A program made the position numbers and the translations under genes. A DNA stretch of 64,000 nucleotides from Catellatospora vulcania. GTDB taxonomy: Bacteria; Actinomycetota; Actinomycetes; Mycobacteriales; Micromonosporaceae. The notes beneath the pieces are model-generated. The model was not told the DNA's origin, searched no databases, and worked only from the letters and a program-made list of their open reading frames with translations. Below, one piece after another: positions 4,809 to 32,645 of this stretch. The DNA lies in contig NZ_ML769307.1 in the NCBI RefSeq assembly GCF_009720385.1, positions 177,510 to 241,509 of the forward strand, read 5' to 3'. Each line of letters begins with the position of its first letter. Within the stretch, counting starts at the first letter, position 1.

Positions 4809-4833
4809 TCACCCGTCCTGCCTGATCGAAAAC
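4809..4833 (-). promoter_or_regulatory. SigB-like promoter for rsbQP
   Basis: On the minus strand GTTT is followed by 15 bp and GGGTGA, ending about 12 bp before the rsbQ GTG. It fits the GNNT-N15-GGG layout seen at eight other sites in the window. The rest of 4797-5152 shows no gene. Confidence 0.5.
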
Positions 4834-5152
4834 TTATGCGCACCCCGCCTGAGCTGCACTGACTGACATATACACGAATATGATCTTCGTTGTCCGGCCC
4901 CATGCGAGCGTGACGCATGGTATGTGGGCGACTCGCATCTCGGATACAGCGCGGCCACTGCGGGCGAAGCCGGTGACGGGACGCGGCCCCACCGGCGAAG
5001 ATCACGCGCTGATCAATTCCTGCCGGCGGGCCTACCGCACGTTGAGCAAGTGCGTCGAATGACTGCACTGGTCAACGTGGACGATGACCGGCTGCTTCGC
5101 AAGGTGAACGCGGGGCGATGTCGTGCGTGCGGCGGGTTCGGTTGCCAGATGC

Positions 5153-5177
5153 GTTTGCCGCGGCGATGCAGGGGCAG
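5153..5177 (+). promoter_or_regulatory. SigB-like promoter for glsB-type gene
   Basis: GTTT, 15 bp, then GGGCAG, located 39 bp upstream of the start codon at 5216. Same spacing as the other stress-gene candidates in this window. Confidence 0.45.
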
Positions 5178-5215
5178 ATGGACGGCATAAGAACTTCACG
5201 GGTAAGGAGAAGGTC

Positions 5216-5485
5216 ATGACTGTCGCCGGAATCATCTCGGCCCTCATCGTCGGTCTGGTCATCGGCGCGCTCGGCCGGCTCGTGCTGCCCGGCCGCCAGA
5301 GCCTGCCGATCTGGCTGACCATCGTCGTGGGCATCGTCGCCGCGCTGATCGGCACCGCGATCGCGCAGGCTGTGGGCGTGGCCGTCACCGACGGCATCGA
5401 CTGGATCGAACTCGTCTTCCAGGTCGGCCTCGCCGCGCTCGGCGTCGCGCTGCTGTCCGGTTTCCGCGGACGCAGCACCGTCTGA
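5216..5485 (+). CDS. GlsB/YeaQ/YmgE-family stress membrane protein
   Basis: This is an 89-residue, three-helix membrane protein of the transglycosylase-associated/GlsB family. Helix 1 starts directly (MTVAGIISALIVGLVIGALGR), a conserved loop with LPG follows, and two further hydrophobic segments run to the C-terminus. Members are small stress-induced inner-membrane proteins with no proven biochemical role. ATG 5216 follows AAGGAGAAGG at ideal spacing. A SigB-like promoter lies upstream, and a 22-bp perfect palindromic terminator sits directly after the stop, so it is a monocistronic unit next to rsbQP. Confidence 0.9.
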   Translation: MTVAGIISALIVGLVIGALGRLVLPGRQSLPIWLTIVVGIVAALIGTAIAQAVGVAVTDGIDWIELVFQVGLAALGVALLSGFRGRSTV

Positions 5486-5495
5486 GCGACGCCAT

Positions 5496-5539
5496 GAATG
5501 GTGCGGGGCCCGAACTCGAGTTCGGGCCCCGCACCATTC
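5496..5539 (+). terminator. Perfect 44-nt palindromic terminator
   Basis: Two 22-bp arms (GAATGGTGCGGGGCCC...) meet with no spacer, so in RNA the central bases must form the loop. It lies 10 bp past the preceding stop codon. The stretch from 5540 to 5845 shows no gene. Confidence 0.8.
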
Positions 5540-5845
5540 GTTTCTGCGTGATCGACCCGGATCGGTTCGCCGGTGTGATGCACCCGCAGGATCGCCGAAT
5601 ATGAGTCATAGTCGACGAACTGCCACAGGTTGAGCAGGTAAGACGCAGGCTATCGACAAGCCGCAGTTACGCAGTGAGTGGCGCGCCGAGTTTGCAGGTC
5701 ATCCGTTCGGGTAGGTGACTGATAGGACCTTCCGGTCGTTTTCGGAAAGCGCCGTGTCATGGTCTATCGCCGACGGCGCTGTGCCTGAGCCGGGTGGGTA
5801 AGAACTTCGTGCTACGGCGATGATGTCTCGGAGGGCGGAGGAGCC

Positions 5846-6253
5846 ATGCATCTGACCGCAACTCCCATGGGCTCGCCGCCTCCGGTAGCGGCCATGGATT
5901 TTCACTCTGTCGAAGACCTGGCCGCGGTCAGAGAGTTCGTGTGCTCCCAAGCTCAGCAGGTAGGCCTGTCCGATGACCGGATCCCGGCGCTTCGGCTGGC
6001 CGTCTGCGAGGTCGCGACCAACACCCTGCAGCACACCTCGTCGGGGGGTATCGCACGCGTGTGGTCCGAGGACTGCAAAGTGATCACCGAGGTGACCGAC
6101 TTCGGCAGCCTGCCCAGCCGGAAAACACGCCGGACGGATCAAACCGAGGTACCCGGTGGCTGGGGCCTGCGCATAGCCACCGAGATCTGCGATGCCTTCC
6201 ACTGCTTCAGCCAACCGGGACAAACCGTCTGGCGTCTTGTGCTCAACAGATGA
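5846..6253 (+). CDS. RsbW-like ATP-binding anti-sigma/kinase-fold protein
   Basis: This 135-residue stand-alone HATPase_c-type domain is related to the RsbW/SpoIIAB serine kinases. The N-box is E55-VATNTLQH, the G1 box is TDFG (84-87) and the G2 box is GGWGLRIA (104-111). Such proteins bind and inhibit a sigma factor, or phosphorylate a STAS partner. Single-domain forms are abundant in filamentous actinobacteria and often lack a proven partner. A GGAGGGCGGAGGAG site precedes ATG 5846. A close paralogue with the same start segment (DLAAVREFVC) lies at 16911-17324. The nearby STAS protein is a candidate partner. Confidence 0.85.
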   Translation: MHLTATPMGSPPPVAAMDFHSVEDLAAVREFVCSQAQQVGLSDDRIPALRLAVCEVATNTLQHTSSGGIARVWSEDCKVITEVTDFGSLPSRKTRRTDQTEVPGGWGLRIATEICDAFHCFSQPGQTVWRLVLNR

Positions 6254-6374
6254 CGCCGAGCGGGCAGATCGCCGATGCGGCCACTCCGGCGGTGCCAGAG
6301 GGCCATGACCAACCTCGTCGGCATAGCCCCCAAGCAGCCGAGGCGACATGTGCTGCAAGCTGAGTTCGCAGCCG

Positions 6375-6560
6375 TCAATGGGTAAGCTGAACCCGTACCC
6401 TGTCCACGGCTCTGTCCGTCAAAGTGGTCTTGCCGGGCTCGCTGCTAGGCTGAGCGATCACGGCGGGCTCCCCGTCCTGGGTCACCAGCTGGGCAACATA
6501 TGCCTGCACGTCGTCGGCGGTGACGTCCAACTCGCGTGCCAGTTCATCGATCGTCTGCAT
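6375..6560 (-). CDS. Small HTH-like hypothetical protein
   Basis: This predicted protein of 61 residues has an N-terminal helical segment (DELARELDVTADDVQAYVAQL) resembling the short helix-turn-helix found in many small actinobacterial proteins. A tail rich in Asp and Arg follows. GGGAGG lies 5 bp upstream of the ATG, which supports real translation. I do not recognise the family. It is flanked by the RsbW-like gene and by about 260 bp (6561-6820) in which I see nothing except the downstream promoter. Confidence 0.55.
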   Translation of the reverse strand: MQTIDELARELDVTADDVQAYVAQLVTQDGEPAVIAQPSSEPGKTTLTDRAVDRVRVQLTH

Positions 6561-6786
6561 CGGGGCCTCCCATTGTCGATGATCCTTCTATGCCCTGATC
6601 TGCGGAGGCCAAATCCAGCCGGGCTGGGAAGCAGTCCACGGTCCCTGCCTGCACGCTGCTCAACTGCCGCGGTCGGCGGCCACGAACCGCCGGCGCGACG
6701 GGCGTGCTGACGCGGGAGGATCCGGGGTCATCGGCTGCGGGAGCCTGTCCATCGGCTGCCAGAAATCCCTTGCCGCTGGCTGGTGG

Positions 6787-6811
6787 GAATGAATTACCAG
6801 GTCACGGGTAG
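6787..6811 (+). promoter_or_regulatory. SigB-like promoter for DUF4235 gene
   Basis: GAAT, 15 bp, then GGGTAG, ending 9 bp before ATG 6821. The -10 element is a strong match; the -35 fits only GNNT. Confidence 0.4.
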
Positions 6812-6820
6812 CTCCTTGCC

Positions 6821-7088
6821 ATGATTACGCAGAAAATCGTCTACAAGCCGATCGGGATGGCCGGCGGCGTGCTAGCCGGCGCGGTCGCCGGCGCGGCGTT
6901 CAAGCAGATATGGCGACTCGCCTCGGGGGGCGCGTCAAGCGCCGCACGCTACCGATCCGGCCAAGGGATGGCCCGAGATCCTCATGGCGGCGGCGATTCA
7001 GGGAGCAGTCTTCGGCCTGGTCAAGGCAACCGTCGATCGTGGGGGCGCGCACGCGGTCAAGTCGTTGACGGGTCGCTGGCCGGACTGA
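6821..7088 (+). pseudogene. DUF4235 membrane protein, frameshifted
   Basis: The first frame gives the DUF4235 N-terminus (KIVYKPIGMAGGVLAGAVAGAAFKQIWRLASG). From about 6930 the family continues in the +1 frame as ATDPAKGWPEILMAAAIQGAVFGLVKATVDRG..., ending at TGA 7086-7088. The switch falls at or just after a run of six G (6925-6930). Joining the two frames restores a full-length (about 88-residue) two-helix protein with no other lesion. This is therefore either a very recent frameshift, a sequencing error in the G run, or programmed slippage. The gene is normally found beside small membrane-anchored proteins like the next one. Confidence 0.75.
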
Positions 7089-7149
7089 ACGCCCATCGAT
7101 AACGACCTACCCGGCCTGGTCGTGAGAGGGCTTGACGTCGGCCGGGTCG

Positions 7150-7174
7150 GATTAGCGCAGGAAAAGCCGGGTAC
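7150..7174 (+). promoter_or_regulatory. SigB-like promoter for Ala-rich anchored protein
   Basis: GATT, 15 bp, then GGGTAC, which matches the GGGTAY -10 consensus. It ends 35 bp upstream of ATG 7210. Confidence 0.45.
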
Positions 7175-7209
7175 CGGAGTCCTACGCCCGACCCGGAAGG
7201 ACCTGGCTG

Positions 7210-7614
7210 ATGCCTACGAAGAACGACGTCGTTTCGACCACCGTCGACCTGGCAACGAGCAGCACTACGACGGCAGGGCAGTTGTTCACCGACCGTGCCG
7301 AAGAGGCCGGGCATGCCCTTGCCCACGCCGGCCGAGTGGCAACGGACAAGGCGGCGGACGTCGCCCAGGACGCCGGCGCTCAGGCCGGCGCAGCCAAGGA
7401 CACGGCGCTGGAGGCAGCTGCTGCGATCAAGGATCGTGCCGCCGCCACCTTCAACGCCGTGGCCGAGCAGATGCCGCAGACGCCGCAGCAGTGGCGTGCC
7501 GCCGGTCAGCAGCTCACCGACCGTGTGCGCAGCAACCCCCGGCCTTGGCTGATCGGCACTGGTGCGGTACTGCTCGTATGGTGGCTGGGACGGCGCTCCG
7601 CCCGATCAAAGTAA
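7210..7614 (+). CDS. Ala-rich amphipathic protein with C-terminal membrane anchor
   Basis: The first about 100 of 134 residues are a long, Ala/Asp/Lys-rich amphipathic helical region with repeating AxDKAADxAQDAG-like units. It resembles LEA-type or DUF3618-neighbour proteins. One transmembrane helix (PWLIGTGAVLLVWWLG) and a short basic tail (RRSARSK) follow, predicting a cytoplasmic coiled region tethered to the membrane. GGAAGGA precedes the ATG. The protein fits the common actinobacterial cluster with DUF4235 and is probably involved in envelope stress; no activity can be assigned. A strong terminator follows immediately. Confidence 0.75.
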   Translation: MPTKNDVVSTTVDLATSSTTTAGQLFTDRAEEAGHALAHAGRVATDKAADVAQDAGAQAGAAKDTALEAAAAIKDRAAATFNAVAEQMPQTPQQWRAAGQQLTDRVRSNPRPWLIGTGAVLLVWWLGRRSARSK

Positions 7615-7620
7615 AGCCTG

Positions 7621-7659
7621 CGTAGTGGTTGCCCGGCGATTCGCCGAGCAACCACTACG
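7621..7659 (+). terminator. Strong stem-loop terminator
   Basis: CGTAGTGGTTGC pairs perfectly with its complement at the right side, and the inner CGGCG/CGCCG pairs extend the stem to a 3-nt loop. It begins 6 bp after the preceding stop. Confidence 0.75.
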
Positions 7660-7871
7660 TACCGGCCAATCGTCGACCGCCGCGACACCCAGTCAGAACG
7701 GCAAGACATCAGGCTCGTCTGACGCGCCCCGGACGACATCCGGTGAACCTGGTGCCCAGCTCGTGGCCGGGGCGGTCGCGGCAGTCGAACAGAGGACGGC
7801 GCAGCGTCATCAGATGGAGCGTCGGGTGGATACAGCACGGTGCGTCCCCGGAGAACAGGCAGTTGACAAGG

Positions 7872-8198
7872 ATGATGAACACCGAAGGCTCTGCATTCAG
7901 CATCGAGCGGCAGCTCGACGCGACGCGGCTCAGCGTGGTGGTCCACGGCGATCTCGATCTTGCAACGGCTGACCTGCTGCGAGCTGAACTGTGCGATGCG
8001 GTCAAGCAGTCGCCCGAGGTCGCCGTCGATTTCAGCCGCGTGACGTTCCTCGACTCGACTGGCATCCGCGCACTGGTCGAGGGATTTGCAGCCGCGAAGG
8101 AACTCGGCCACGTGATCTACGTGGAGGGGGCTACGGGCTGGGTCGATCGTGTCATGGAGGTGACCGGGATGCGGACCCTGCTCGCCAGGCCGGCCTGA
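7872..8198 (+). CDS. STAS-domain anti-sigma factor antagonist
   Basis: This roughly 108-residue single STAS domain has the phosphoacceptor segment VDFSRVTFLDSTGIRAL, with Ser of D-S-T-G as the likely site. That makes it an RsbV/SpoIIAA-type anti-anti-sigma protein, which in its dephosphorylated form would release a sigma factor from an RsbW-like protein. It is a plausible substrate of the RsbP-like phosphatase 4 kb away, though that link is inference. Starts at ATG 7872 or 7875 have a poor ribosome site; TTG 7863 is better placed behind GGAGAAC and would add three residues. The frame upstream is open but not coding-like. Confidence 0.82.
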   Translation: MMNTEGSAFSIERQLDATRLSVVVHGDLDLATADLLRAELCDAVKQSPEVAVDFSRVTFLDSTGIRALVEGFAAAKELGHVIYVEGATGWVDRVMEVTGMRTLLARPA

Positions 8199-8323
8199 CT
8201 GATATGTCGCGGTCGGCGAGGCCGCCCGCTAGTCACGCAGTAAGCTCGCGCCTGCTACCACCTGGTTGATAAGGTTCGGCGACGACTTGCCCCTACCGAG
8301 TCGCTACGGCTTGGAGGCAACCG

Positions 8324-9310: not shown

Positions 9311-10771
9311 TCACGGGGCGCGGGAGCCCCGGTGACGCTCCTGCTCGACGACAGCGTCCAGGTCGGCCAGCCGGTCGAGCTGGCGCAGCGGCTGCGTGAG
9401 CCGGATGTTGCCGTGCAGCCGCTGCCGGTTGCGGTGCAGAAAGGCCCAGTAGCCCGCGGTGTAGGGGCAGGCGTCGTCGCCCAGGCGGTGGCGCGGATCG
9501 TACGGGCAGCCGCCGCAGTAGTCGCTCATCCGGTTGAGGTAGGCGCCACCGGCCGCGTAGGGCTTGGTGGTGATGACACCCGCGTCGGCGTACTGGCTCA
9601 TACCGACGACGTTGGCGGTCATCACCCACTCGTAACCGTCGACGAAGTTGCGGTGGAACCAGTCTGCGAGCTGCGCAGGCTGCCAGCCGCGCTGCAGGGC
9701 GTAGTTGCCCAGCACCATCAGCCGCGGGATGTGGTGGACCCAGCCGCGGTCACGTACCCCGGCGAGTACGTCGGACAGGCAGCGGGCTTGGACGGCGTCG
9801 GCGTCGAGGTCGGCGAACCAGCGGGGCAGGGCCCGGCGGGCGGCGAGCTTGTTGCTGGCGGGGTAGTGCTCGCCGAGGTGCCAGTACAGGTGCCAGATGT
9901 AGTCGCGCCAGCCGATGATCTGCCGGATGAACCCTTCGGCGCTGGCCAGCGGGGCCCGGCCGGCCCGGTAGGCGGCCTCGGCCCGGTGGACGGCGTCGAT
10001 CGGGTCGAGCAGGCCGAGGTTGAGCGGTGCCGACAGCATGCTGTGGGCCAGCCATGGGTCGCCGGCGAGCATGGCGTCCTCGTACGGGCCGAACACGGGC
10101 AGTCGGTGGGTGACGAAATGCCGCAGCCGAGCGGCGGCCTCAGCGTGGGTGACGGGGAACAGCCGTGGCCCGTCGCGTCCGGTGAAGGTGATGCCTTCGT
10201 CCTGCCACCGGTCGAGGTCGGCGCGGACCTGGGCGTCGATGTCGTCCTCGACGGGTATCGGCGGCTCGGCGACGTCGAGGCGGCCGGCGGCCGGTGGCGG
10301 CTCGCGGTTGTCGGTGTCGAGGTTCCATCGGCCGCCCGCGGGTTCGTCGCCGTCCATGAGCACGTCGTGCAGTACGCGGCAGTGGCGGTAGAAGTCCTCC
10401 AGGCGGAGCCTTCGCCTGCCGTCGGCCCAGGCGGTGAACTGGGTCGGGGTGGTGACGAAGCCGCGAGGGTCGTGCACGGTGACGTCCGTGGTGCTCAGCA
10501 GCCGCCGGGCGGCACGCGACGTGGGGTGGCAGGCGTCGAGTGGCTCGCGCACCTGGGTCAGCGCTTCGCGGTAGGTCTCGGTGCGCAGATGCAGCGCCTG
10601 GTCACCCAGTTCGGCGGCGCGGTGGCGAAGCGCGGACAGGACCAGGTGCGCTTTCTGGCGGTGGAAGGCACGGCGGCGGAACACCGCCTTGGACTCCACG
10701 AGCAGCACCGGCTGGTCGGTGGAGTCGAGAAAATGCGGTCCCAGTTGATCGGCGAAAAGCCAGCGGCGCAC
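9311..10771 (-). CDS. phrB: Fe-S bacterial cryptochrome/photolyase ((6-4)-type PhrB)
   Basis: This 486-residue flavoprotein belongs to the FeS-BCP group of photolyases, which repair UV (6-4) photoproducts using FAD, a lumazine antenna and a 4Fe-4S cluster. The cluster ligands are visible as Cys331, Cys419, Cys422 and Cys435; the spacings (88, 3 and 13) equal those in Agrobacterium PhrB (350/438/441/454). The N-terminal LFADQLGPHF antenna-domain start and the FVDGYEWVMTANVVGMSQYADAG flavin-site region are also intact. The GTG start has no clear ribosome site. It converges with the DUF3040 gene and lies among stress genes, which fits UV protection. Confidence 0.92.
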   Translation of the reverse strand: MRRWLFADQLGPHFLDSTDQPVLLVESKAVFRRRAFHRQKAHLVLSALRHRAAELGDQALHLRTETYREALTQVREPLDACHPTSRAARRLLSTTDVTVHDPRGFVTTPTQFTAWADGRRRLRLEDFYRHCRVLHDVLMDGDEPAGGRWNLDTDNREPPPAAGRLDVAEPPIPVEDDIDAQVRADLDRWQDEGITFTGRDGPRLFPVTHAEAAARLRHFVTHRLPVFGPYEDAMLAGDPWLAHSMLSAPLNLGLLDPIDAVHRAEAAYRAGRAPLASAEGFIRQIIGWRDYIWHLYWHLGEHYPASNKLAARRALPRWFADLDADAVQARCLSDVLAGVRDRGWVHHIPRLMVLGNYALQRGWQPAQLADWFHRNFVDGYEWVMTANVVGMSQYADAGVITTKPYAAGGAYLNRMSDYCGGCPYDPRHRLGDDACPYTAGYWAFLHRNRQRLHGNIRLTQPLRQLDRLADLDAVVEQERHRGSRAP

Positions 10772-11325: not shown

Positions 11326-11350
11326 GTTTTCGAGGGGTGGCGATGGGCAT
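11326..11350 (+). promoter_or_regulatory. SigB-like promoter for MscS-like gene
   Basis: GTTT, 15 bp, then GGGCAT, ending 33 bp upstream of ATG 11384. Confidence 0.45.
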
Positions 11351-11383: not shown

Positions 11384-12271
11384 ATGGATCTCGAAAGCGT
11401 GCTGACCGACACCGCTCGGTCGATCGCGCTGTTCCTGCCCAAAGCACTGGCCTTCATCGCCATCCTGGTGGTTGCCTGGCTGGCGGCCGGGGCGCTGAGG
11501 ACGCTCACTGACAAGATCCTTGAACGGGTCGGGTTCGACCGGCTCGCCGAGCGCGGCGGCGTCGCCGCCTGGCTGGCCCGCGGCCGCTACGACGCCTCGG
11601 ACCTGGTCGCACGGCTGGTCTACTACGCGGTGCTGCTGTTCGGTCTGCAGCTGGCGTTCGGGATCTGGGGACCCAACCCGGTCTCCGACCTGATCAACGC
11701 GGTTGTGGCATGGCTGCCGCAGGCGTTCGTCGCGATCCTGATCATCGTCGTCGCCACCGCCATCGCGTCCTGGGTGAAGGACATCGTCACCGCCGCACTG
11801 GGCGGACTGTCGTACGGCCGTACGCTGGGCCGTGTCGCCTCGGTGTTCATCATCGGCCTGGGCGTCATCGCGGCGCTCAACCAGATCGGCGTGGCCACGA
11901 CCGTCACCACCCCGATCCTGATCGCCGCGCTGGCGACCGTCGCCGGCATCCTCATCGTCGGTGTCGGCGGCGGCCTGATCCGGCCCATGCAGTCCCGCTG
12001 GGACTCGTGGCTCGACCGTGCGGGCAGCGAGTACGTCCGCGTCGCCGACCACGCCCGCGCCTACGCAGCCGGACAGGCCGACGCCACGCAGATCGTCGGC
12101 GAACGCACCTCCACGGTGTATCAGTCGGCCGAGGCGCCCGCGGCGCAGCAGGCTGCGATCGTCGCCCCGACCCCGCCTGCGGGCCAGCGTGACGACCGCG
12201 ACGTGCCGGCCGAGGACGACATGACGCAGGTCCTGCCCGGTCCGCGACCGGCGGCCGGGCGCGACGCCTGA
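11384..12271 (+). CDS. MscS-like/conserved-TM-helix membrane protein
   Basis: The protein is 295 residues. Hydrophobic segments near residues 15-36, 78-98, 105-127 and 145-190 are arranged in the repeated pattern of the 'conserved TM helix' (CmpX-like) group related to mechanosensitive channels. The last half is soluble, acidic and Pro/Ala-rich. The MscS pore and beta domain are not recognisable, so channel activity is uncertain. AAGGAG precedes ATG 11384, a SigB-like promoter lies upstream and a stem-loop follows, giving a single-gene unit likely responsive to osmotic or general stress. Confidence 0.82.
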   Translation: MDLESVLTDTARSIALFLPKALAFIAILVVAWLAAGALRTLTDKILERVGFDRLAERGGVAAWLARGRYDASDLVARLVYYAVLLFGLQLAFGIWGPNPVSDLINAVVAWLPQAFVAILIIVVATAIASWVKDIVTAALGGLSYGRTLGRVASVFIIGLGVIAALNQIGVATTVTTPILIAALATVAGILIVGVGGGLIRPMQSRWDSWLDRAGSEYVRVADHARAYAAGQADATQIVGERTSTVYQSAEAPAAQQAAIVAPTPPAGQRDDRDVPAEDDMTQVLPGPRPAAGRDA

Positions 12272-16910: not shown

Positions 16911-17324
16911 TCAACCGACGTTCAAGCTGATCACCAGCCGCCACACGGTCCTGCCTGGACAGCTGTAGAGATCGAACCGGTCGCAGACCTCGTCCGCGAT
17001 CCGCAGGCCCCACCCGCCCGCCGAGCCCGGTTCCGCCGGACAGTCGCTGCTGTCGAAGGTTCCGCTGTCGGTGAGCTCGCTGATCACCGTGTCCAGGTCC
17101 GCCCACACCCGCACGGTGCCGCCTGAACAGGTATGGCGCAACGTGTTCGTGGCGACCTCGCTGATCGCCACGCTCAGCCCTGCCAGACGATCGGCGGGCA
17201 GGCCCACGGCTCGCGCGCACTCACACACGAACTCGCGCACCGCCGCCAGGTCGGTCGGACTGTCGAAGGACAGAACCGGCACGCCACGAGGACACGGTTC
17301 GAAGGGTGCGGTCAGCTGACGCAC
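16911..17324 (-). CDS. RsbW-like ATP-binding protein (paralogue)
   Basis: The product is 137 residues and the domain has the same layout as the protein at 5846-6253. E56-VATNTLRH forms the N-box, TDSG the G1 box and GGWGLRIADEVCDRF the G2 box, with the shared start segment DLAAVREFVC. GTG 17324 is chosen because GGGAGGGAGG lies directly upstream; the open frame goes on to 17705 but overlaps the divergent promoters. It carries the best SigB-like promoter in the window (GTTT-N15-GGGTAC). An anti-sigma protein made from a SigB-type promoter would give negative feedback. The target sigma factor is not in view. Confidence 0.85.
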   Translation of the reverse strand: MRQLTAPFEPCPRGVPVLSFDSPTDLAAVREFVCECARAVGLPADRLAGLSVAISEVATNTLRHTCSGGTVRVWADLDTVISELTDSGTFDSSDCPAEPGSAGGWGLRIADEVCDRFDLYSCPGRTVWRLVISLNVG

Positions 17325-17379: not shown

Positions 17380-17404
17380 GTACCCCTGTGGGGGTCGGTG
17401 AAAC
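17380..17404 (-). promoter_or_regulatory. SigB-like promoter for RsbW-like paralogue
   Basis: Minus strand GTTT, 15 bp, then GGGTAC: a full match to GTTT/GGGTAY, ending 55 bp before the GTG. Confidence 0.55.
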
Positions 17405-17480: not shown

Positions 17481-17505
17481 GTTTGCCGAGGCAGGAACAG
17501 GGAAC
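17481..17505 (+). promoter_or_regulatory. SigB-like promoter for alcohol dehydrogenase
   Basis: GTTT, 15 bp, then GGGAAC. The expected transcription start falls only a few bases before an in-frame ATG at 17514. Confidence 0.45.
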
Positions 17506-17576: not shown

Positions 17577-18758
17577 ATGAAGGCAGTGGTGTGGCACGGC
17601 AAGCGCGACGTACGCGTGGACACGGTCGCTGATCCCGTGATCCAGGAACCCACCGACGCGGTCATCAAGGTGACCTCTACCGGCATCTGCGGCTCCGACC
17701 TGCATCTATACGAGGTCCTGGCGCCGTTCATGACCGCCGGTGACATCATCGGTCACGAGCCGATGGGCATCGTGGAAGAAGTCGGCTCCGCGGTGACCCG
17801 GCTCAAGCCCGGCGACCGGGTGGTGGTTCCGTTCCAGATCGCCTGCGGCTCCTGCTTCATGTGCGACCAGAACCTGCAGACCCAGTGCGAGACGACCCAG
17901 GTGCGCTCCGAAGGGATGGGCGCTGCCCTGTTCGGCTACACACGCCTGTACGGGCAGGTCCCCGGCGGGCAGGCAGAGTACCTGCGGGTGCCGCAGGCCC
18001 AGTACGGCCCGATCACTGTGCCGGCCGGGCCGCCCGACGACCGGTTCGTGTACCTGTCCGACGTGCTGCCCACCTCGTGGCAGGCCGTCGAGTACGCGGC
18101 GGTGCCACCGGGCGGCACGCTGCTGGTACTGGGCCTCGGCCCGATCGGCGACATGTCGTGCCGGATCGCGCTGCACCACGGCGCAGGCAGGGTTATCGGC
18201 GTCGACCCGGTCGCCGAGCGGCGCGACCGGGCCATGGCCCGCGGTGTGGAGGTCCTCGACCTGGATGACCAGGACGCACTGGTCGCCCGGATCCGGGACA
18301 TGACCGGCGGCCGCGGACCCGACTCGGTCATCGACGCGGTCGGCATGGAGGCGCACGGCTCGCCGATCGCCAAGGCGATGCAGCAGATGACCGGCGTCCT
18401 GCCGGACGCCTGGGCCGCCAAGCTCATGGAGACCGCCGGCATCGACCGCCTCGCCGCGCTGAACCTCGCCATCGAGGCCGTCCGCCGCGGCGGCACCATC
18501 TCGATCATCGGCGTGTACGGCGGCATGACCGACCCGCTGCCCATGATGACCCTGTTCGACAAGCAGATCCAGATCCGGATGGGTCAGGCCAACGTACGCC
18601 GCTGGGTCGACGACATCCTGCCCCTGCTCACCGACGCCGACCCGCTCGGCGTGGCCGGCTTCGCCAGCCACCGGCTGCCACTGGCCGACGCGCCCGCGGC
18701 ATACCAGCAGTTCCAGGAGAAGAAGGACGGCTTCATCAAGGTACTGCTGCAACCGTGA
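17577..18758 (+). CDS. Zinc-dependent medium-chain alcohol dehydrogenase
   Basis: This 393-residue MDR enzyme of the formaldehyde/threonine-dehydrogenase-like group has the catalytic-zinc residues in TGICGSDLHLY and GHEPMGIVEEVG. The structural-zinc region is CGSCFMCDQNLQTQC and the nucleotide site is LGLGPIGDM. It oxidises an alcohol or hydroxyl-thiol adduct with NAD(P); the substrate is unknown. ATG 17577 is the usual family start and has AGAAGGG upstream. An in-frame ATG at 17514 would add a Cys-containing tail (MTKCCSQGGGSS) and lies close to the predicted transcription start, so a second, near-leaderless form is possible. Monocistronic. Confidence 0.9.
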   Translation: MKAVVWHGKRDVRVDTVADPVIQEPTDAVIKVTSTGICGSDLHLYEVLAPFMTAGDIIGHEPMGIVEEVGSAVTRLKPGDRVVVPFQIACGSCFMCDQNLQTQCETTQVRSEGMGAALFGYTRLYGQVPGGQAEYLRVPQAQYGPITVPAGPPDDRFVYLSDVLPTSWQAVEYAAVPPGGTLLVLGLGPIGDMSCRIALHHGAGRVIGVDPVAERRDRAMARGVEVLDLDDQDALVARIRDMTGGRGPDSVIDAVGMEAHGSPIAKAMQQMTGVLPDAWAAKLMETAGIDRLAALNLAIEAVRRGGTISIIGVYGGMTDPLPMMTLFDKQIQIRMGQANVRRWVDDILPLLTDADPLGVAGFASHRLPLADAPAAYQQFQEKKDGFIKVLLQP

Positions 18759-18917: not shown

Positions 18918-18942
18918 GTTTAGACGACCGCGCTGCGGGAAG
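18918..18942 (+). promoter_or_regulatory. SigB-like promoter for DksA-like gene
   Basis: GTTT, 15 bp, then GGGAAG, ending 35 bp before ATG 18978. Confidence 0.45.
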
Positions 18943-18977: not shown

Positions 18978-19349
18978 ATGACCGCTGTAGCGGAGAGTGT
19001 AGACACGGCTTCGATCGGCCGGCTGCTTCAGCAGCGTCACGACGAGGCCGCCGAGCAGGTGCGACGCCTGCAGGACCAGACCGAATCGATGCGTGGTTCC
19101 CACGACGCCGGCGCGGGTGACGCCGCAGACGTCGGCACGCTCGCGCTGGAAGCGGCCGAGCAGGCGATGGTGACCATGGCGCTGCAGGAGCAGATGACCC
19201 GCCTGCAGGCCGCGCTGAAGCGGCTCGACGACGGCACCCTCGGCGTGTGCCAGCGCTGCAGTACGCAGATCCCGGTGACCCGGCTGCAGGTGATGCCGTG
19301 GGCCACGCACTGCGTGCCCTGCCAGAGCATCGTGGACCGCTACCGCTGA
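18978..19349 (+). CDS. DksA/TraR-type zinc-finger protein
   Basis: This 123-residue protein has a long helical N-terminal region (a coiled-coil finger: LLQQRHDEAAEQVRRLQDQ ... ALKRLDDGTLGVC). A C4 zinc finger formed by CQRC and CVPC follows. DksA/TraR proteins insert a coiled coil into the RNA polymerase secondary channel and tune promoter response to ppGpp. The acidic tip motif is not obvious, so the mode here is uncertain. GTAGGAGGAACACC precedes the ATG, a SigB-like promoter lies upstream and a strong shared terminator follows. Confidence 0.88.
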   Translation: MTAVAESVDTASIGRLLQQRHDEAAEQVRRLQDQTESMRGSHDAGAGDAADVGTLALEAAEQAMVTMALQEQMTRLQAALKRLDDGTLGVCQRCSTQIPVTRLQVMPWATHCVPCQSIVDRYR

Positions 19350-19398: not shown

Positions 19399-20550
19399 CT
19401 ACCGCGCGAGATAGGCCGGCAGACTGAACGATGCCAACGCGCGGCGGTAGGCACGCGCGTAACCGAGAGCCATGGCCGTGGCGCTGAAGTTGCGCACCAC
19501 GTGGGAGCGACAGTCACGCGGGTCGAGTTGGGTCACGTCCTTCAGCGCCTGCGGCAGCTCGCCGGGATCGTCGCAGATCAGCCCGGTGACGCCGTGCCGC
19601 AGCACCTCCGGCACCGCCCCGGCGCGCAGCGCCACGACAGGGGTGCCGCAGACCATCGACTCGATCATCACCATCCCGAACGGCTCCTCCCACTGCACCG
19701 GGAACAGCAGGCAGCGCGCGTTGCTGAACAGTCGGCGCTTCAGCGTCGCGTCGGCCGGCCCGATCATCTTGTCGTGCGGTCCGAGCAGCGGCTCGACCTG
19801 TTCGGCGAAGTAGCGCCGCTCCGGCGGCTCGTTGCACTTGCCGGCCAGGATCAGCGGCAGGCCGGCCTCGCGTGCGGCGAGCACCGCCGTGTGCGCTCCC
19901 TTGTCCGGGCTGAACCTGCCCAGGAACAGCGCGTAGTCGCCCTTGGTCGGCTGGAAGGGCCAGTCGGCCGGGTCCAGGCCGTTGTGCACGGTGTCGATCC
20001 AGTTCAGTTCCGGAGCCAGTGCGCGCTGCCTGCCGCTGATCGCGATGAGCGGCAGGTCGGCGCCCATGGCGCGGTAGTACTCCCGCAGCTCGCTGTCTGC
20101 CGGCCCGTGGACCGTGGCCACGGTGGGCAGGTCCAGCCGCGCGTAGGCAGGGGCGTTGAGGGGGCCGGCGAAGGTGTGGTCGTGGACGATGTCGACCTGG
20201 CCTTCGGCGGCGAGCTGCTCGACCACGCGTCGTGCCTGCACGGCATAGATGATCTCGGGCCCCGGTTCGCCCAGCCGCTCCGGGACGGACCTGTCCCACA
20301 CGGCGCGGAAGCCGGCTCGGGTGCCGTTGCGTCCAGCCGCGACGAGGGTCACCTGATGCCCGGCGCTGACCAGGGCGTTGCTGAGGTCGGCCAGGACGGC
20401 TTCGATGCCGCCGTAGCCTGCCGGGGGAATGTCGAAATATGGCGGCGCGACCATCGCGATCTTGAGCTGTCTGGGGTCGCCCGTGGATTCCTCGGGAATG
20501 CCCGGTGAGGCGATGGCCGGCCCGGTGCCGCGTATGGCGGTGGTTGTCAT
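19399..20550 (-). CDS. Family 4 glycosyltransferase (GT-B fold)
   Basis: The 383-residue GT4 enzyme has the N-terminal loop PPAGYGGIEAVLADLSNALVSAGHQVTLVA. A central ALFLGRFSPDKG follows, then the C-terminal E-x7-E motif in EEPFGMVMIESMVCGTPVVALRAGAVPEV. These transferases move a sugar from a nucleotide donor to a lipid, trehalose or polysaccharide acceptor. The donor and acceptor are unknown; similar stand-alone GT4 genes occur in stress regions with compatible-solute roles. GGGGTAT lies 10 bp upstream of the ATG, another possible -10 element with a very short leader. Single gene. Confidence 0.88.
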   Translation of the reverse strand: MTTTAIRGTGPAIASPGIPEESTGDPRQLKIAMVAPPYFDIPPAGYGGIEAVLADLSNALVSAGHQVTLVAAGRNGTRAGFRAVWDRSVPERLGEPGPEIIYAVQARRVVEQLAAEGQVDIVHDHTFAGPLNAPAYARLDLPTVATVHGPADSELREYYRAMGADLPLIAISGRQRALAPELNWIDTVHNGLDPADWPFQPTKGDYALFLGRFSPDKGAHTAVLAAREAGLPLILAGKCNEPPERRYFAEQVEPLLGPHDKMIGPADATLKRRLFSNARCLLFPVQWEEPFGMVMIESMVCGTPVVALRAGAVPEVLRHGVTGLICDDPGELPQALKDVTQLDPRDCRSHVVRNFSATAMALGYARAYRRALASFSLPAYLAR

Positions 20551-28830: not shown

Positions 28831-28992
28831 GTGCACGGACATGGGGAACGGAGAGCGACCGAGGCGCACGACGAGGTGACCCGCGTGATGCGGCGGGTCC
28901 GGGAACTGAACAGGAAGCACCGGTGGGTATGCCCGCCCGAGGTGCTGCGCGTCATCGCCGACCGGCTGCGCGGAGACGGCGATGAAAAGTAG
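28831..28992 (+). CDS. Small basic hypothetical protein
   Basis: The predicted product has 53 residues from GTG 28831 and is highly charged, with a helical core (EVTRVMRRVRELNRKHRWVCPPEVLRVIADRLRG). GGGGAGGG lies 6-13 bp upstream of the GTG and marks the start; the frame is open to 28765 but less coding-like. Its 3' end overlaps the next gene by 11 bp. Family not recognised. With its partner it is divergent from a GntR gene across an inverted repeat, so the pair is probably GntR-controlled. Confidence 0.6.
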   Translation: MHGHGERRATEAHDEVTRVMRRVRELNRKHRWVCPPEVLRVIADRLRGDGDEK

Positions 28993-29197: not shown

Positions 29198-29220
29198 ACC
29201 CGCGCTCGGCGTCGGCGGTG

Positions 29221-29643
29221 TCACCGCGACTGAACGGACACCCGATAGTTGATCTCGACCAGGTCGTGGGAGTAGACCGCCGTCCGGAAGGTGAGCCGCA
29301 GCCAGCGGTGCTCGCCTCCGCGCGGGTCGTCGGCCACCTCGACACGCTCGTCGCAGGCGCCGATGTGCACCGCCCCGGGGTTGCCGGTGCTGCGGAACCG
29401 CCGCACGCTCAGCTCCACCGACAGCGCCAGCGGCGGCTGGGGGTACGGCAGGCTGTCGGGCAGGAAGACCGTGATCTCCTGCAGGTCGTCCAGGCGCACC
29501 GCGCCCCGGAAGCCCGCCCGGCGCGCCAGGCAGAGGTATCCGCTGTAGACGGTCGAGCGCACCTGCTCGCCGGTGGCCGGATCGACACCGGCGTGGTAGG
29601 CGCGCGGGCCGGGCACGACGGCGCGCAGCTCCAGGAAGTCCAC
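29221..29643 (-). CDS. Hypothetical protein, beta-rich
   Basis: This 140-residue protein of unknown family consists mainly of beta strands (RSTVYSGYLCLARRAG, VRLDDLQEITVFLPD, LALSVELSVRRFRS, HRWLRLTFRTAVYSHDLVEINYRV), suggesting a single sandwich or lipocalin-like fold. The start is set at the ATG at 29643. It begins 10 bp after the wHTH gene ends, so it is likely the last gene of the swivelling-domain operon. Confidence 0.6.
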   Translation of the reverse strand: MDFLELRAVVPGPRAYHAGVDPATGEQVRSTVYSGYLCLARRAGFRGAVRLDDLQEITVFLPDSLPYPQPPLALSVELSVRRFRSTGNPGAVHIGACDERVEVADDPRGGEHRWLRLTFRTAVYSHDLVEINYRVSVQSR

Positions 29644-29653
29644 GCCCGGAACA

Positions 29654-30241
29654 CTAGCGGGCGACGCCCAGCGACGCGACGAGGTCCTCGTGCAGCTCGA
29701 ACCAGACGCGGTGGCAGGAGTCGACCTCCACGCCGGTGATCCACGCCGGATCGTCGGCGGCGCGGTCGAGTGCCGCCGCGAAGCGCCGATGGTAGCCGCC
29801 GAACCGGGACAGGTGAGCGGTCAGCCGGTGTTCGAGCGGGCGTAGTCGTTGCGCGAGCTGCCTGAGGATGTCTCCGGTCGCCGCAGGGGCGCCGGAGTCG
29901 AGCGTCCGGAGCTGCCAGGACGTGAACGACTGGGTCGCCTGGGCGTTGAGCGGCAGGAAGTCGTCGTGGACGGCGGTGACGGCGTCGCGGGCGGCGACGC
30001 CGTCGAGCTCGTCGCGCAGTTGGGATTCGTTGTGGCGGCGGCCGGCTTCGGTCAGCGACCAGCCGGTCAGCCCGGCGAAGGCGACCCGGGTGACCCGGCC
30101 GTACGCCTCGGCGTCGAGCAGGTCCTCGTGGGTCTGCTCGGGGTCGAGGCCGAAGCGGGCGGCGACGGCGCCGGTCCCGGCGAATCCCGTCAACCGGACG
30201 GCGTGTAGCACCAGGAGCTCGGCGGGGGACCGGTGGGCCAT
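29654..30241 (-). CDS. Winged-helix-like hypothetical protein
   Basis: This 195-residue protein starts with a wHTH-like segment (ELLVLHAVRLTGFAGTGAVAARFGL, with a YGRVTRVAFAGLTGWSLTEAGRRHN wing) and continues with a helical domain of unknown type. ATG 30241 overlaps the stop of the preceding swivelling-domain gene (ATGA), so the two should be made in fixed ratio. It may read out the phosphorylation state of that partner as a DNA-binding regulator, but this is inference from order alone. Confidence 0.65.
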   Translation of the reverse strand: MAHRSPAELLVLHAVRLTGFAGTGAVAARFGLDPEQTHEDLLDAEAYGRVTRVAFAGLTGWSLTEAGRRHNESQLRDELDGVAARDAVTAVHDDFLPLNAQATQSFTSWQLRTLDSGAPAATGDILRQLAQRLRPLEHRLTAHLSRFGGYHRRFAAALDRAADDPAWITGVEVDSCHRVWFELHEDLVASLGVAR

Positions 30242-30585
30242 CAGCGGCCCGCGTCCGCCGCCGCGGTGACGGTGCCGAGGGCGCCGTCGACGGTGACCGG
30301 TGCCCCGTCGTCCAGCCGCGACATCGCGTCGGCCGCGCCGACGACGGCGGGGATCCGGTACTCCCGGGCGACGATCGCCGCGTGGCAGAGCAGCCCGCCG
30401 GTCTCGGTGACCACCGCGGCGGCGAGCCGGAACAAGGGTGTCCAGGCAGGATCGGTGGTCCGGCACACGAGCACGTCGCCGGGCCGCATGCGGCCGAAGT
30501 CGTCGACGGAGCGCACCACCCTCGCGGGGCCGTATGCCCGGCCGGGGCTGCTCGGCACCCCGGTGACGACGGTGGGCCCGGTCAT
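30241..30585 (-). CDS. Stand-alone PEP-utilising phosphohistidine (swivelling) domain
   Basis: This 114-residue protein consists only of the mobile histidine domain found in PEP synthase and pyruvate phosphate dikinase. The catalytic element TETGGLLCHAAIVAREYRIP, with the phospho-accepting His, is complete, as is the preceding GDVLVCRTTDPAWTPLF. The ATP-grasp and PEP-binding (TIM-barrel) domains that normally supply the phosphoryl groups are absent and not encoded nearby. The start overlaps the HTH gene upstream, and the stop overlaps the wHTH gene downstream. It might act as a phospho-relay switch for its neighbours or serve a kinase encoded elsewhere. Confidence 0.85.
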   Translation of the reverse strand: MTGPTVVTGVPSSPGRAYGPARVVRSVDDFGRMRPGDVLVCRTTDPAWTPLFRLAAAVVTETGGLLCHAAIVAREYRIPAVVGAADAMSRLDDGAPVTVDGALGTVTAAADAGR

Positions 30586-30968
30586 GCGTCCTCGCCGAGT
30601 CGTGCCGTCACCCGGTCGTGGCGCTGCTGTGCCGCCTGGGCGCTGCGCAGGCCCAGCGCGTCGGCGATCTGCGCCCAGGTCAGGCCCTCGGCGCGGGCGG
30701 CGAACAGCACGCCCGCTTCGAGCTGGTCCAGCTCGCTGCGCGCCGCGGACAGCAGCGTGACGGTGGCGAGCAGATCGTCGGTCAGCTCCGGCGAGCGCCG
30801 TTCGGTGTTGGCCCGCCACAGGGCCTGCCGGACCAGGGTGACCGCGTCGTGCGGCTGGCCGGCGGCCAGCCACGGCAGCCGAGGCAGCTCACCGCCGCGT
30901 GCGGTGAGCCGGGCACGTGCCCGGCTCTCGGCCTCGGCTGCCGCGTGGTCGTCCGACGATCCGGTCAT
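30582..30968 (-). CDS. HTH protein of swivelling-domain operon
   Basis: In this 128-residue protein a helical core is followed by a C-terminal HTH of the sigma region-4/LuxR-like kind (AARAEGLTWAQIADALGLRSAQAAQQRHDRV). The middle (TLLSAARSELDQLEAGVLFAAR) also resembles the small HTH proteins paired with accessory genes. ATG 30968 is the first gene of the operon and lies 20 bp from a tandem palindrome likely to be its own operator. Stop and next start overlap by 4 bp. Confidence 0.7.
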   Translation of the reverse strand: MTGSSDDHAAAEAESRARARLTARGGELPRLPWLAAGQPHDAVTLVRQALWRANTERRSPELTDDLLATVTLLSAARSELDQLEAGVLFAARAEGLTWAQIADALGLRSAQAAQQRHDRVTARLGEDA

Positions 30969-30987
30969 GCTGGGAGCATGGCTTTTC

Positions 30988-31013
30988 AACAAACTGTTTG
31001 TCAACAGACTGTT
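30988..31013 (-). promoter_or_regulatory. Tandem AACA-N3-TGTT palindromes
   Basis: Two 11-bp sites, AACAAACTGTT and AACAGACTGTT, each an AACA-N3-TGTT palindrome, are spaced 15 bp centre to centre just upstream of the HTH gene. A TTGACA sequence overlaps them on the minus strand. They look like an operator for the operon's own HTH protein. Confidence 0.55.
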
Positions 31014-31017
31014 GAAG

Positions 31018-32541
31018 TCACGCCTTCTGCTGCATGCTCGTCCGGGCGGGATTGGCCTGCTGGGCGGCCTTGGGATCCTTCTCGCCCTGCTTGGCCCGCA
31101 CACCGGCCTCGATCCGGTCGCCCAGTGACTTGTCGACGTTGTGCCAGTACTGGAACGCCCGCTCCAGCACCGGCTCGCTCACCCCGTTGAGCAGGTGGCC
31201 GACGATGTTGTCGACCAGGCGCTGCCGCGCGTCGTCGTCCAGCACCTCACGGACCATCGTGCCGGCCTGTCCCCAGTCGTCGTCGTCGGGACGCAGCGTG
31301 TACGCCGCGCGGACCATCTCGCCGTCGGAGTACCACAGGCCGCCGTCGTCGGTCAGCTCCGGACGGGCCTGCGGGCCGCCGTAGGAGTTCGGCGCGTACA
31401 CCGGGTCGCTGACATTGACGACGCGCATCGCGCCGTCCTTGGAGTAGCTGTGCACCGGCGCCTTGGGCGCGTTGACCGGGATCTGCCTGTAGTTCACCCC
31501 GAGCCTGGCCCGGTGCGCGTCGGAGTAGCTGAACCCGCGGGCCAGCAGCATCTTGTCCGGCGACAGCCCGGTCCCGGCGACCAGGTTGTTCGGCTCGAAC
31601 GCGGCCTGCTCGATCTCGGTGTGGTAGTCGGTGACGTTGCGGTTCAGGGTCATCCGGCCCACCTCGTGCAGCGGGTAGTCGCCGTGCGGCCACACCTTGG
31701 TCAGGTCGAACGGGTTGAACCGGTAGGTCTTGGCGTCCTCGAACGGCATGATCTGCACGTGCAGGGTCCAGCTCGGGAACTGCCCGGCCGCGATGTGCTC
31801 GTAGAGGTCGCGCTGGTGGTAGTCGGTGTCCGCGGACGCCATCTGGTCGCCCTCGTCCTGGGTGAAGAACTCGATGCCCTGGTCGGTCTTGAAGTGGTAC
31901 TTGACCCAGCACCGCTCACCCTGCGCGTTGATCCACATGTAGGTGTGGCTGCCGTACCCGTTCATGTGCCGCCAGCTGCGCGGGATGCCCCGGTCGCCCA
32001 TCAGCCAGGTGACCTGGTGGGCCGACTCCGGCGACAGCGTCCAGAAGTCCCACTGCATGTCGTGGTCGCGCAGGTTGTTGTCCGCCCGGCGCTTCTGCGA
32101 GCGGATGAAGTGCTGGAACTTGAGCGGGTCCCGGATGAAGAACACGGGCGTGTTGTTGCCGACGATGTCCAGGTTGCCTTCACCGGTGTAGAACTTGACC
32201 GCGAACCCGCGCGGATCACGCCACGTGTCGGGGCTGCCGCGCTCACCGGCCACGGTGGAGAACCGGATCAGCACATCGGTCTTCGCGCCCGGCTGGAACA
32301 CCGCCGCCCGGGTATGGGCGCTGTGGTCCGCGGTCACCTCGAACGTGCCGAACGCACCGCCGCCCTTGGCGTGCGGCTGGCGCTCCGGGATGCGCTCGCG
32401 GTTGAAGTTGGCCATCTGCTCCAGCAGGTAGTGGTCCTGCAGGAGCAGGGGACCGTCCGGGCCGACGGTCAGCGAGTGCTCGTCGCTGGCAACGGGGATA
32501 CCGGCATCCGTCGTCGTGGGACGGCGGTCCTGTGCAGTCAT
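31018..32541 (-). CDS. katA: Monofunctional haem catalase
   Basis: This 507-residue catalase decomposes hydrogen peroxide. The distal His lies in [15 protein letters not shown], and the proximal haem Tyr in [14 protein letters not shown]; the [10 protein letters not shown] and DTDYHQRDL segments complete the core. The length matches small-subunit clade catalases. ATG 32541 follows GGAAAGGAAAAC; the open frame runs on to 32628 but the conserved N-terminus begins at MTAQDRRP. A SigB-like promoter (GCAT-N15-GGGTAA) lies about 80 bp upstream, matching the SigB dependence of catalase in Streptomyces. Confidence 0.95.
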
Positions 32542-32620
32542 CGAGAGTTTTCCTTTCCTCGCGGACGCTCGCGTCACCACCTGGGCGCGCAGCTGCTCCG
32601 GGGATCTTCCCGACCCTCGT

Positions 32621-32645
32621 TTACCCATTTTGCCCTAGATGATGC
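32621..32645 (-). promoter_or_regulatory. SigB-like promoter for catalase
   Basis: Minus strand GCAT, 15 bp, then GGGTAA, with the same spacing as the other candidates; leader of about 75 bp. Confidence 0.45.

What the first reader, a model, noticed from the sequence alone, without database searches (positions are those of the whole stretch)
4809..32645. Nine stress-gene promoters share an exact GNNT-N15-GGG layout
rsbQP, the GlsB-type gene, the DUF4235 gene, the Ala-rich anchored protein, the MscS-like gene, the RsbW-like paralogue, alcohol dehydrogenase, DksA-like protein and catalase are each preceded by a GNNT element and a GGG-starting -10, always spaced 15 bp, at 4809-4833, 5153-5177, 6787-6811, 7150-7174, 11326-11350, 17380-17404, 17481-17505, 18918-18942 and 32621-32645. 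This matches the Streptomyces SigB consensus (GNNT-N14-16-GGGTAY). The gene products are stress functions, and two regulators of the pathway carry the promoter themselves. A constant spacing over nine units is unlikely by chance, though I searched by eye.
Basis: partly seen in the sequence, partly recalled or inferred. Interest (0 to 1): 0.75.

Follow-up and report, generated by a model that had tools for sequence, protein, structure and literature searches.

The report
SigB-type stress promoters clustered in actinomycete
A 24-kb stretch of a soil actinomycete genome carries about ten stress genes that each have the same kind of stress-sigma-factor switch in front, a known kind of switch that here is unusually dense and unusually uniform in its spacing.

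Summary
The nine sites are present as described, each GNNT-N15-GGG, but the motif as written is loose (64 hits in the window). With an independent matrix from 24 published S. coelicolor SigB-homologue promoters, six of nine score at least 12 bits. Three do not (rsbQ, DUF4235, catalase), and four better sites were missed (1172-, 1693+, 5690+, 20584-). In 1-24 kb, 10 of 27 genes have a strong site, against 5 of 284 in other stretches of the genome. GTTT-N15-GGG ranks first of 53,816 four-plus-three dyads. Relatives keep the promoter: MscS 79 of 80, GlsB 26 of 30, alcohol dehydrogenase 24 of 29. So do own-genome paralogues (8 of 10 examined at 12 bits, 10 of 10 at 10). The rsbQ site is not conserved (0 of 8). 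Exact N15 is not a property of the promoter class (MscS and GlsB relatives mostly use N16); it is a local uniformity (10 of 10 strong sites). Best reading: an auxiliary general-stress island of duplicated genes, read by one or more of five SigB/F/G-family sigma factors encoded elsewhere. The promoter type is already known, including from Actinoplanes sigma-H. Ordinary in kind; the uniform spacing is unexplained.

The parts
1148..1172 (-).
   Evidence: score 16.9; gene family; 14 of 29 relatives have a site; own paralogue on C7 has one
625..1095 (-). SRPBCC-type (PF03364) gene
1693..1717 (+). SigB-type site GTTTGC-N13-GGGAAT (missed) before SDR gene 1812-2645(+)
   Evidence: score 15.5; not tested in relatives
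1812..2645 (+). short-chain dehydrogenase
2752..3975 (-). RsbP-like PAS + SpoIIE phosphatase
   Evidence: PF13426, PF07228
3993..4796 (-). RsbQ-like alpha/beta hydrolase
   Evidence: best PDB match is RsbQ 1wom, E 3.3e-82
   Evidence: score 9.2; no site of 10 or more in 8 relatives
5153..5177 (+). SigB-type site GTTTGC-N13-GGGCAG before the GlsB-type gene
   Evidence: score 12.5; 26 of 30 relatives, one of them the own-genome C1 paralogue
   Evidence: no Pfam hit; NF007771 far below cut-off; widespread in the family
5690..5714 (+). SigB-type site GTTTGC-N13-GGGTAG (missed) before RsbW-like gene 5846-6253
   Evidence: score 14.1, 132 bp upstream
5846..6253 (+). RsbW-like HATPase_c_2 protein
   Evidence: PF13581
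6787..6811 (+). weak site GAATGA-N13-GGGTAG before DUF4235 gene
   Evidence: score 7.7; paralogue on C11 has GATTGA-N13-GGGTAT
6821..7102 (+). DUF4235 gene, reading frame apparently broken after about 40 residues
   Evidence: Pfam match covers only profile positions 1-30 of 77
7150..7174 (+). SigB-type site GATTAG-N13-GGGTAC before Ala-rich membrane-anchored protein
   Evidence: score 12.7; GATTAG-N13-GGGTAT before the homologue in Catellatospora locus L045
7210..7614 (+). Ala-rich protein with C-terminal hydrophobic segment
   Evidence: translation; no Pfam hit
7875..8198 (+). RsbV-like STAS anti-sigma antagonist, 58% identical to the STAS protein in the sigma operon on C5; no site of 10 bits or more listed upstream
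11326..11350 (+). SigB-type site GTTTTC-N13-GGGCAT before MscS-like gene
   Evidence: score 14.2; 79 of 80 related loci
11384..12271 (+). MscS-like channel protein (PF05552)
17380..17404 (-). SigB-type site GTTTCA-N13-GGGTAC before second RsbW-like gene
   Evidence: score 16.0; paralogue on C4 has a site with N17; paralogue on C11 only 10.7
16911..17324 (-). RsbW-like HATPase_c_2 protein, likely GTG start at 17324
   Evidence: PF13581; start codon scan; NF041045 below cut-off
17481..17505 (+). SigB-type site GTTTGC-N13-GGGAAC before alcohol dehydrogenase
   Evidence: score 13.9; 24 of 29 relatives; 96%-identical paralogue on C7 keeps it
17577..18758 (+). zinc-type alcohol dehydrogenase family protein
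   Evidence: below every listed cut-off, so family level only
18918..18942 (+). SigB-type site GTTTAG-N13-GGGAAG before DksA-like gene
   Evidence: score 15.3; three nearest relatives L167 (N17), L168 (N15), L169 (N16); paralogue on C16 (N16)
18978..19349 (+). DksA/TraR zinc-finger protein
   Evidence: PF01258
20560..20584 (-). site GTGAAC-N13-GGGTAT (missed) 10 bp before glycosyltransferase gene 19399-20550(-)
   Evidence: score 13.1; GGGTAT also lies just before the start of the L045 orthologue (best 11.0, N17) and of the own paralogue on C1 (10.4, N16)
32621..32645 (-). weak site GCATCA-N13-GGGTAA before catalase 31018-32541(-)
   Evidence: score 10.2; 6 of 16 relatives, inconsistent spacing

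Best explanation
Window 1-24 kb (plus a few kb to its left) is a cluster of general-stress genes, about ten of which start at their own SigB-type promoter (GTTT or GATT/GTGA, 15 bp, GGG[TAC]A). RNA polymerase carrying one or more of the five SigB/F/G-family sigma factors encoded elsewhere in this genome would read them. Partner switching would control the sigma: STAS antagonist, HATPase anti-sigma and SpoIIE phosphatases. Some partner-switch parts (RsbP/RsbQ-like, STAS, two RsbW-like) lie in the island, and the two RsbW-like genes carry the promoter, so feedback is likely. Many island genes have further copies elsewhere in the genome, mostly with the same promoter type. Shown: the sites, their enrichment, position and conservation, the presence of the sigma and partner-switch genes, and the paralogy. 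Inferred: that they are transcribed, by which sigma, under which stress, and the feedback.
For: Independent S. coelicolor matrix: 10 of 27 genes in 1-24 kb have a site of 12 bits or more within 200 bp, against 5 of 284 in 320 kb of arbitrarily placed stretches of the same genome (6 of 284 there with wrong spacers, so chance level), 3 of 43 in the rest of the window and 2 of 68 in the C13 flanks (4 of the 27 genes were added by hand, 3 of them carry a site). Sharp peak at one spacer: 10 hits, all upstream of genes, other spacers 0-2. GTTT-N15-GGG first of 53,816 four-plus-three dyads. Shuffles 0 of 300. Genome: GTTTN14-16GGGTA 41 against 8 reversed; 5 of the 41 in 23 kb, P 1.5e-4 by simulation. 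Relatives: MscS 79 of 80 (reversed control 6 of 80), GlsB 26 of 30 (6 of 30), ADH 24 of 29 (1 of 30), SRPBCC 14 of 29 (3 of 30). Own-genome paralogues of site-bearing genes in the fetched stretches: 8 of 10 reach 12 bits and 10 of 10 reach 10, against 27 of 284 genes at 10. Five SigBFG sigma factors over the NCBIfam cut-off, one in a STAS-HATPase-sigma operon. In Actinoplanes SE50/110, same family, sigma-H gives [GC]GTTT[AC] - 14.6 nt - GGGTA and its expression raises DUF4235 and BrkB/YihY genes (PMC11205660); both families are in this island.
Against: No expression data. rsbQ site not conserved (0 of 8; reversed control 1 of 9) and catalase site weak (6 of 16; control 1 of 17). RsbW-family relatives are not above control (4 of 28; control 3 of 29) and DksA-family relatives mostly lack sites (9 of 29; control 1 of 30), though most of both sets are distant. 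Two paralogues fall below 12 bits (RsbW on C11 10.7, glycosyltransferase on C1 10.4). No site of 10 bits upstream of the STAS gene and none of 11 bits directly upstream of any of the five sigma genes, although neighbours of three of them have one. Two island genes look broken (DUF4235; BrkB match starts at profile position 123), so part of the island may be decaying. Relatives are not independent: most MscS loci are from Micromonospora.
Confidence: 0.85

Rival explanations
1. The sites are chance matches to a loose motif in a 70% G+C genome, noticed because the reader looked only at stress genes.
Against: Shuffles 0 of 300, four-plus-three dyad search, background rate 5 of 284 genes, footprints in relatives and paralogues.
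Confidence: 0.03
2. The elements are real promoters but are read by a different sigma class (housekeeping, FliA-type or an ECF sigma), not the SigB/F/G family.
For: The genome has 96 Sigma70_r2 matches; no sigma of the SigBFG family lies in the island.
Against: Both boxes match SigB-homologue promoters of S. coelicolor and sigma-H of Actinoplanes; partner-switch genes are in the island.
Confidence: 0.07
3. The uniform N15 spacing is a chance run: sites with N14-N17 work alike and ten in a row happened to be N15.
For: N15 is the commonest spacing in the rest of the genome (18 of 44 listed hits with N14-17); ADH orthologues are mostly N15. Like for like, the five strict GTTT-GGGTA sites of the island all being N15 has P 0.023 only.
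Against: 10 of 10 strong island sites against 3 of 8 in paralogues (Fisher 0.0065; matched eight pairs 8 of 8 against 3 of 8, 0.013); about 5e-4 for ten matrix sites against the background-corrected share 0.47 of the strict pattern, which mixes two definitions.
Confidence: 0.6

Closest known systems
SigB-homologue promoters of Streptomyces coelicolor (nine SigB homologues), PMC8346170 (passages seen)
   Same: GTTT/GNNT, GGG[TCA]A, 14-17 nt between GTTT and GGG; stress genes; the matrix built from them finds the sites.
   Different: Those promoters vary in spacer (12-15 between hexamers, 14 commonest); the island's strong ones are all 13. Sigma assignment was tested there, not here.
sigma-H regulon of Actinoplanes sp. 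SE50/110, PMC11205660 (passages and table rows seen)
   Same: Same family, Micromonosporaceae; [GC]GTTT[AC]-14.6 nt-GGGTA; raises DUF4235 and BrkB/YihY genes, families also found in this island.
   Different: The other listed targets are not shown to match; the terms alcohol dehydrogenase, catalase and RsbW do not occur in that paper's main text.
SigB general-stress regulon of Bacillus subtilis with RsbQ-RsbP input (PMC9847131, passages seen; 1wom)
   Same: GTTT..GGG promoters; RsbQ- and RsbP-like pair present.
   Different: No sigB operon in the island, several SigB/F/G-family paralogues in the genome, and the rsbQ gene lacks a conserved SigB-type site.

Membership tests
SigB-type promoter | -35 GTTT (or GNNT) and -10 GGG[TAC]A | tested here: met
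SigB-type promoter | 14-16 bp between GTTT and GGG | tested here: met
   all ten strong sites N15; N14-N17 in paralogues
SigB-type promoter | conserved upstream of orthologues | tested here: met
   MscS 79 of 80, GlsB 26 of 30, ADH 24 of 29, SRPBCC 14 of 29; not met for rsbQ (0 of 8), inconclusive for catalase (6 of 16), DksA (9 of 29) and RsbW2 (4 of 28, not above control); SDR and RsbW1 sites not tested in relatives
SigB-type promoter | a SigB/F/G-family sigma factor is encoded | tested here: met
   five over the TIGR02980 cut-off
SigB-type promoter | transcription start 6-10 bp after the -10 and dependence on that sigma | not testable with these tools
   needs 5' mapping and sigma mutants
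RsbQ-RsbP energy-stress module | RsbQ-like hydrolase next to PAS + PP2C (SpoIIE) phosphatase | tested here: met
   1wom E 3.3e-82; the pair is kept in 4 congeners
RsbQ-RsbP energy-stress module | acts on an RsbV-RsbW pair controlling a sigma | not testable with these tools
   candidates present (STAS 7875, RsbW-like 5846 and 17324) but no interaction data

The most novel reading that the evidence does not exclude
The island's duplicated stress genes have been retuned to one spacing (GTTT-N15-GGG) while their own-genome paralogues keep N14-N17. This would mark a sub-regulon read preferentially by one of the five SigB/F/G-family paralogues, spacer length being a discriminator where the S. coelicolor study reported no distinguishing sequence features between sigma groups.
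Probability: 0.13. Interest if true: 0.6.

Novelty: new member of a known kind. Interest (0 to 1): 0.36.

Why it matters
It gives a compact, testable set of about ten stress promoters in a family (Micromonosporaceae) where the searches I ran showed one SigB-homologue motif, that of Actinoplanes sigma-H. It also offers matched promoter pairs, island copy against paralogue, that differ by 0-2 bp of spacer, suited to asking whether spacer length separates the overlapping SigB paralogues of actinomycetes.

Tried and rejected
Rejected: exact N15 as a feature of the promoter class (a site of 12 bits at spacer 14, that is N16, in 66 of 80 MscS loci and 23 of 30 GlsB loci). Rejected: rsbQP as a member. 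In 4 congeners (75-89% identity) no site reaches 10 bits; a different conserved block lies just before the start, which may be a leaderless promoter (by eye). Rejected: whole-island synteny. RsbQP is kept in G001, G002, G003 and G009, but in the 40-80 kb fetched around it no other island gene was found at 45% identity or more, apart from a 54% STAS match in G001.

Led nowhere: PDB search with the RsbW-like protein gave 0 hits. Literature searches for the island or for spacer-based sigma choice gave nothing specific (listings seen; passages read only in PMC8346170, PMC11205660, PMC9847131, PMC3184153). One search took upstream DNA without regard to strand and is superseded.

Dropped rows and limits: MscS relatives are the best 80 of 263. 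RsbQ counts use L125-L133 only, 9 of the 30 loci fetched, because the rest are at most about 42% identical. RsbW2 used 29 of 30 (L251 gave no alignment). Counts quoted as 'of 29', 'of 28', 'of 16' and 'of 8' leave out the window's own copy, which the call outputs include; the reversed controls are of all rows. GlsB's 30 include the own-genome paralogue on C1. For GlsB, DksA, ADH and SRPBCC I had one locus per genome for 30 of 52, 48, 43 and 46 genomes with matches. Of own-genome paralogues I examined only those in fetched stretches: for GlsB one of six further matches, for DksA one of two; a 36-residue RsbW remnant on C7 (7.0-7.7 bits) was left out. The four-plus-four and three-plus-four dyad searches were topped by other words. 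The listing shows 100 of 113 places, so the spacing table lacks 13 rows; it also reports the site C13:171524 with a shorter spacing. The background stretches were placed arbitrarily, not drawn at random. Gene calls come from my own simple codon-usage caller; four window genes were added by hand. The SDR (1693) and RsbW1 (5690) sites were not checked in dedicated relative searches. The organism's genus is not established; nearest named MscS relatives are Catellatospora.
Full report
Setting. The window is C13:177510-241509 of an 8.83-Mb genome in 36 contigs. The nearest named relatives of its MscS-like protein are Catellatospora species, 71-77% identical, so this is a Micromonosporaceae-type actinomycete; I did not establish the genus.

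The observation. All nine sequences are present with 15 bases between GNNT and GGG. Six have GTTT; 6787, 7150 and 32645(-) have GAAT, GATT and GCAT. The pattern is loose (64 hits in the window), so I built a matrix from the 24 promoters shown for S. coelicolor SigB homologues in Table 2 of PMC8346170 (passages read). It owes nothing to this genome. Six of the nine score 12 bits or more. Three do not: rsbQ 9.2, DUF4235 7.7, catalase 10.2. Four better sites were missed: 1172(-) before an SRPBCC gene (16.9), 1693(+) before an SDR (15.5), 5690(+) before an RsbW-like gene (14.1) and 20584(-) before a glycosyltransferase (13.1).

More than chance. With any spacer from 6 to 21 allowed, hits of 12 bits or more in 1-24 kb number 10 at spacer 13 (= N15), all ten within 200 bp upstream of a gene; other spacers give 0-2. 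No such peak exists in 320 kb of arbitrarily placed stretches. Per gene: 10 of 27 in 1-24 kb, 3 of 43 in the rest of the window, 5 of 284 in those stretches, 2 of 68 in the C13 flanks. With wrong spacers (7-10) the counts are 1 of 27, 0 of 43, 6 of 284 and 2 of 68 (four of the 27 genes were added by hand, three of which carry a site). With no prior motif, GTTT-N15-GGG ranks first of 53,816 four-plus-three dyads in the 27 upstream regions (8 regions against 0.5 expected from other spacings, p 6e-8, about 0.003 after correction for that search). In the four-plus-four and three-plus-four searches other words came first, with shifted forms of the same motif (GGTT-N17-GGTA, GTT-N16-GGGT) among the top ten. 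In the whole genome GTTTN14-16GGGTA occurs 41 times against 8 for the reversed pattern. Five of the 41 fall in 23 kb around this island (P 1.5e-4 in 20,000 simulations), two of them left of the window.

Conservation. A site of 10 bits or more lies within about 220 bp upstream in 79 of 80 MscS loci (reversed-sequence control 6 of 80), 26 of 30 GlsB relatives (6 of 30), 24 of 29 ADH relatives (1 of 30) and 14 of 29 SRPBCC relatives (3 of 30). For DksA it is 9 of 29 (1 of 30), including the three nearest, L167-L169. For RsbW2 it is 4 of 28 (3 of 29, so not above control), for catalase 6 of 16 with inconsistent spacing (1 of 17), for rsbQ 0 of 8 (1 of 9). These rows are related to each other, so they are not independent events. 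Within the genome I could examine ten paralogues of site-bearing or reader-listed genes in the fetched stretches. Eight carry sites of 12 bits or more: GlsB on C1 (100% identical protein), MscS and RsbW on C4, ADH (96%) and SRPBCC (82%) on C7, DUF4235 and the Ala-rich protein on C11, DksA on C16. Two fall below: RsbW on C11 (10.7) and the glycosyltransferase on C1 (10.4). All ten reach 10 bits, against 27 of 284 genes in the background. In the Catellatospora locus L045 the Ala-rich homologue keeps GATTAG-N13-GGGTAT. The glycosyltransferase there keeps GGGTAT just before its start, with an ambiguous -35 (best 11.0 at N17; GTGATC-N13 by eye).

Spacing. N15 is not a fixed property of this promoter type. 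MscS relatives mostly have N16 (66 of 80 at 12 bits), as do GlsB relatives (23 of 30). The eight strong own-genome paralogue sites have N14 once, N15 three times, N16 three times and N17 once. Yet the island's ten strong sites are all N15. Against the paralogues this gives Fisher p 0.0065, or 0.013 for the eight matched pairs. Against the background-corrected genome share of N15 (0.47, from 100 of 113 listed places) ten in a row would have P about 5e-4. That mixes matrix sites with a strict pattern; like for like, five of five strict sites have P 0.023. The comparison is small and post hoc. Chance is still the likeliest account, and specialisation to one sigma paralogue is the bold one.

Mechanism. 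The genome has five sigma factors over the SigBFG cut-off, none on C13. The one on C5 sits in a STAS-HATPase-sigma operon, divergent from an ANTAR-GAF-SpoIIE gene that itself has a SigB-type site (12.9). No sigma gene has a site of 11 bits directly upstream, but the genes just upstream of the C9 and C15 sigmas do (12.3 and 13.7). The island's own STAS protein (7875-8198) is 58% identical to the STAS of the C5 operon, which makes the C5 sigma a candidate; this is inference. The island also has RsbP- and RsbQ-like genes and two RsbW-like genes, the last two with strong sites. The simplest model is: stress signal, phosphatase, dephosphorylated STAS protein, HATPase released from sigma, transcription of the island, with feedback through the RsbW-like genes. 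Only the parts list is shown here; the order of steps is recalled from the B. subtilis system.

Known or new. The promoter type is known in Streptomyces (PMC8346170, passages) and in the same family: sigma-H of Actinoplanes SE50/110 gave [GC]GTTT[AC], 14.6 +/- 1.9 nt, GGGTA from 178 upstream sequences, and its expression raised DUF4235 and BrkB/YihY genes (PMC11205660, passages and table rows). Both families occur in this island, though both copies look broken. The finding is therefore a new member of a known kind, with an unusual density and a local spacing uniformity that deserve a test.

Noticed in passing
window 6821-7102: The DUF4235 gene looks broken: the Pfam match stops at profile position 30 of 77 and the remainder appears by eye to lie in another frame. 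It may be a decayed gene or an assembly error.
   Followed up: partly
window 1-353 (-): A BrkB/YihY-family gene whose open frame matches only from profile position 123 on; the in-frame stretch upstream (to 620) does not look BrkB-like by eye.
   Followed up: partly
L333 (own C7:60001-80000): Second stress cluster with near-identical ADH (96%), an SRPBCC paralogue (82%) and a short C-terminal RsbW-like piece, with SigB-type sites of mixed spacing.
   Followed up: partly
L346 6030-10604 (own C5): STAS-HATPase-sigma operon divergent from an ANTAR-GAF-SpoIIE gene with a SigB-type site: candidate sigma for the island.
   Followed up: partly
L350 4075-8145 (own C1): A 76%-identical paralogue of the island's glycosyltransferase lies about 3 kb from another SigB/F/G-family sigma gene.
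   Followed up: no
window 4790-4833 (-): In four congeners the DNA just before the rsbQ start shares a different short block (ggtgrgaYmatSg-like), suggesting a leaderless, non-SigB promoter (by eye).
   Followed up: partly
window 9311-10699 (-): Photolyase/cryptochrome-related protein (PF04244) inside the stress island, without a strong SigB-type site.
   Followed up: no
window 61855-63075: Sigma70 region 2 match (E 1e-6), probably an ECF-type sigma factor, at the right end of the window.
   Followed up: no
L342 (own C4:400001-420000): A second MscS-RsbW locus resembling the Catellatospora loci L047 and L048, including a GATTA-type site before a small membrane protein; a SigB/F/G-family sigma gene lies within about 16 kb.
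   Followed up: partly
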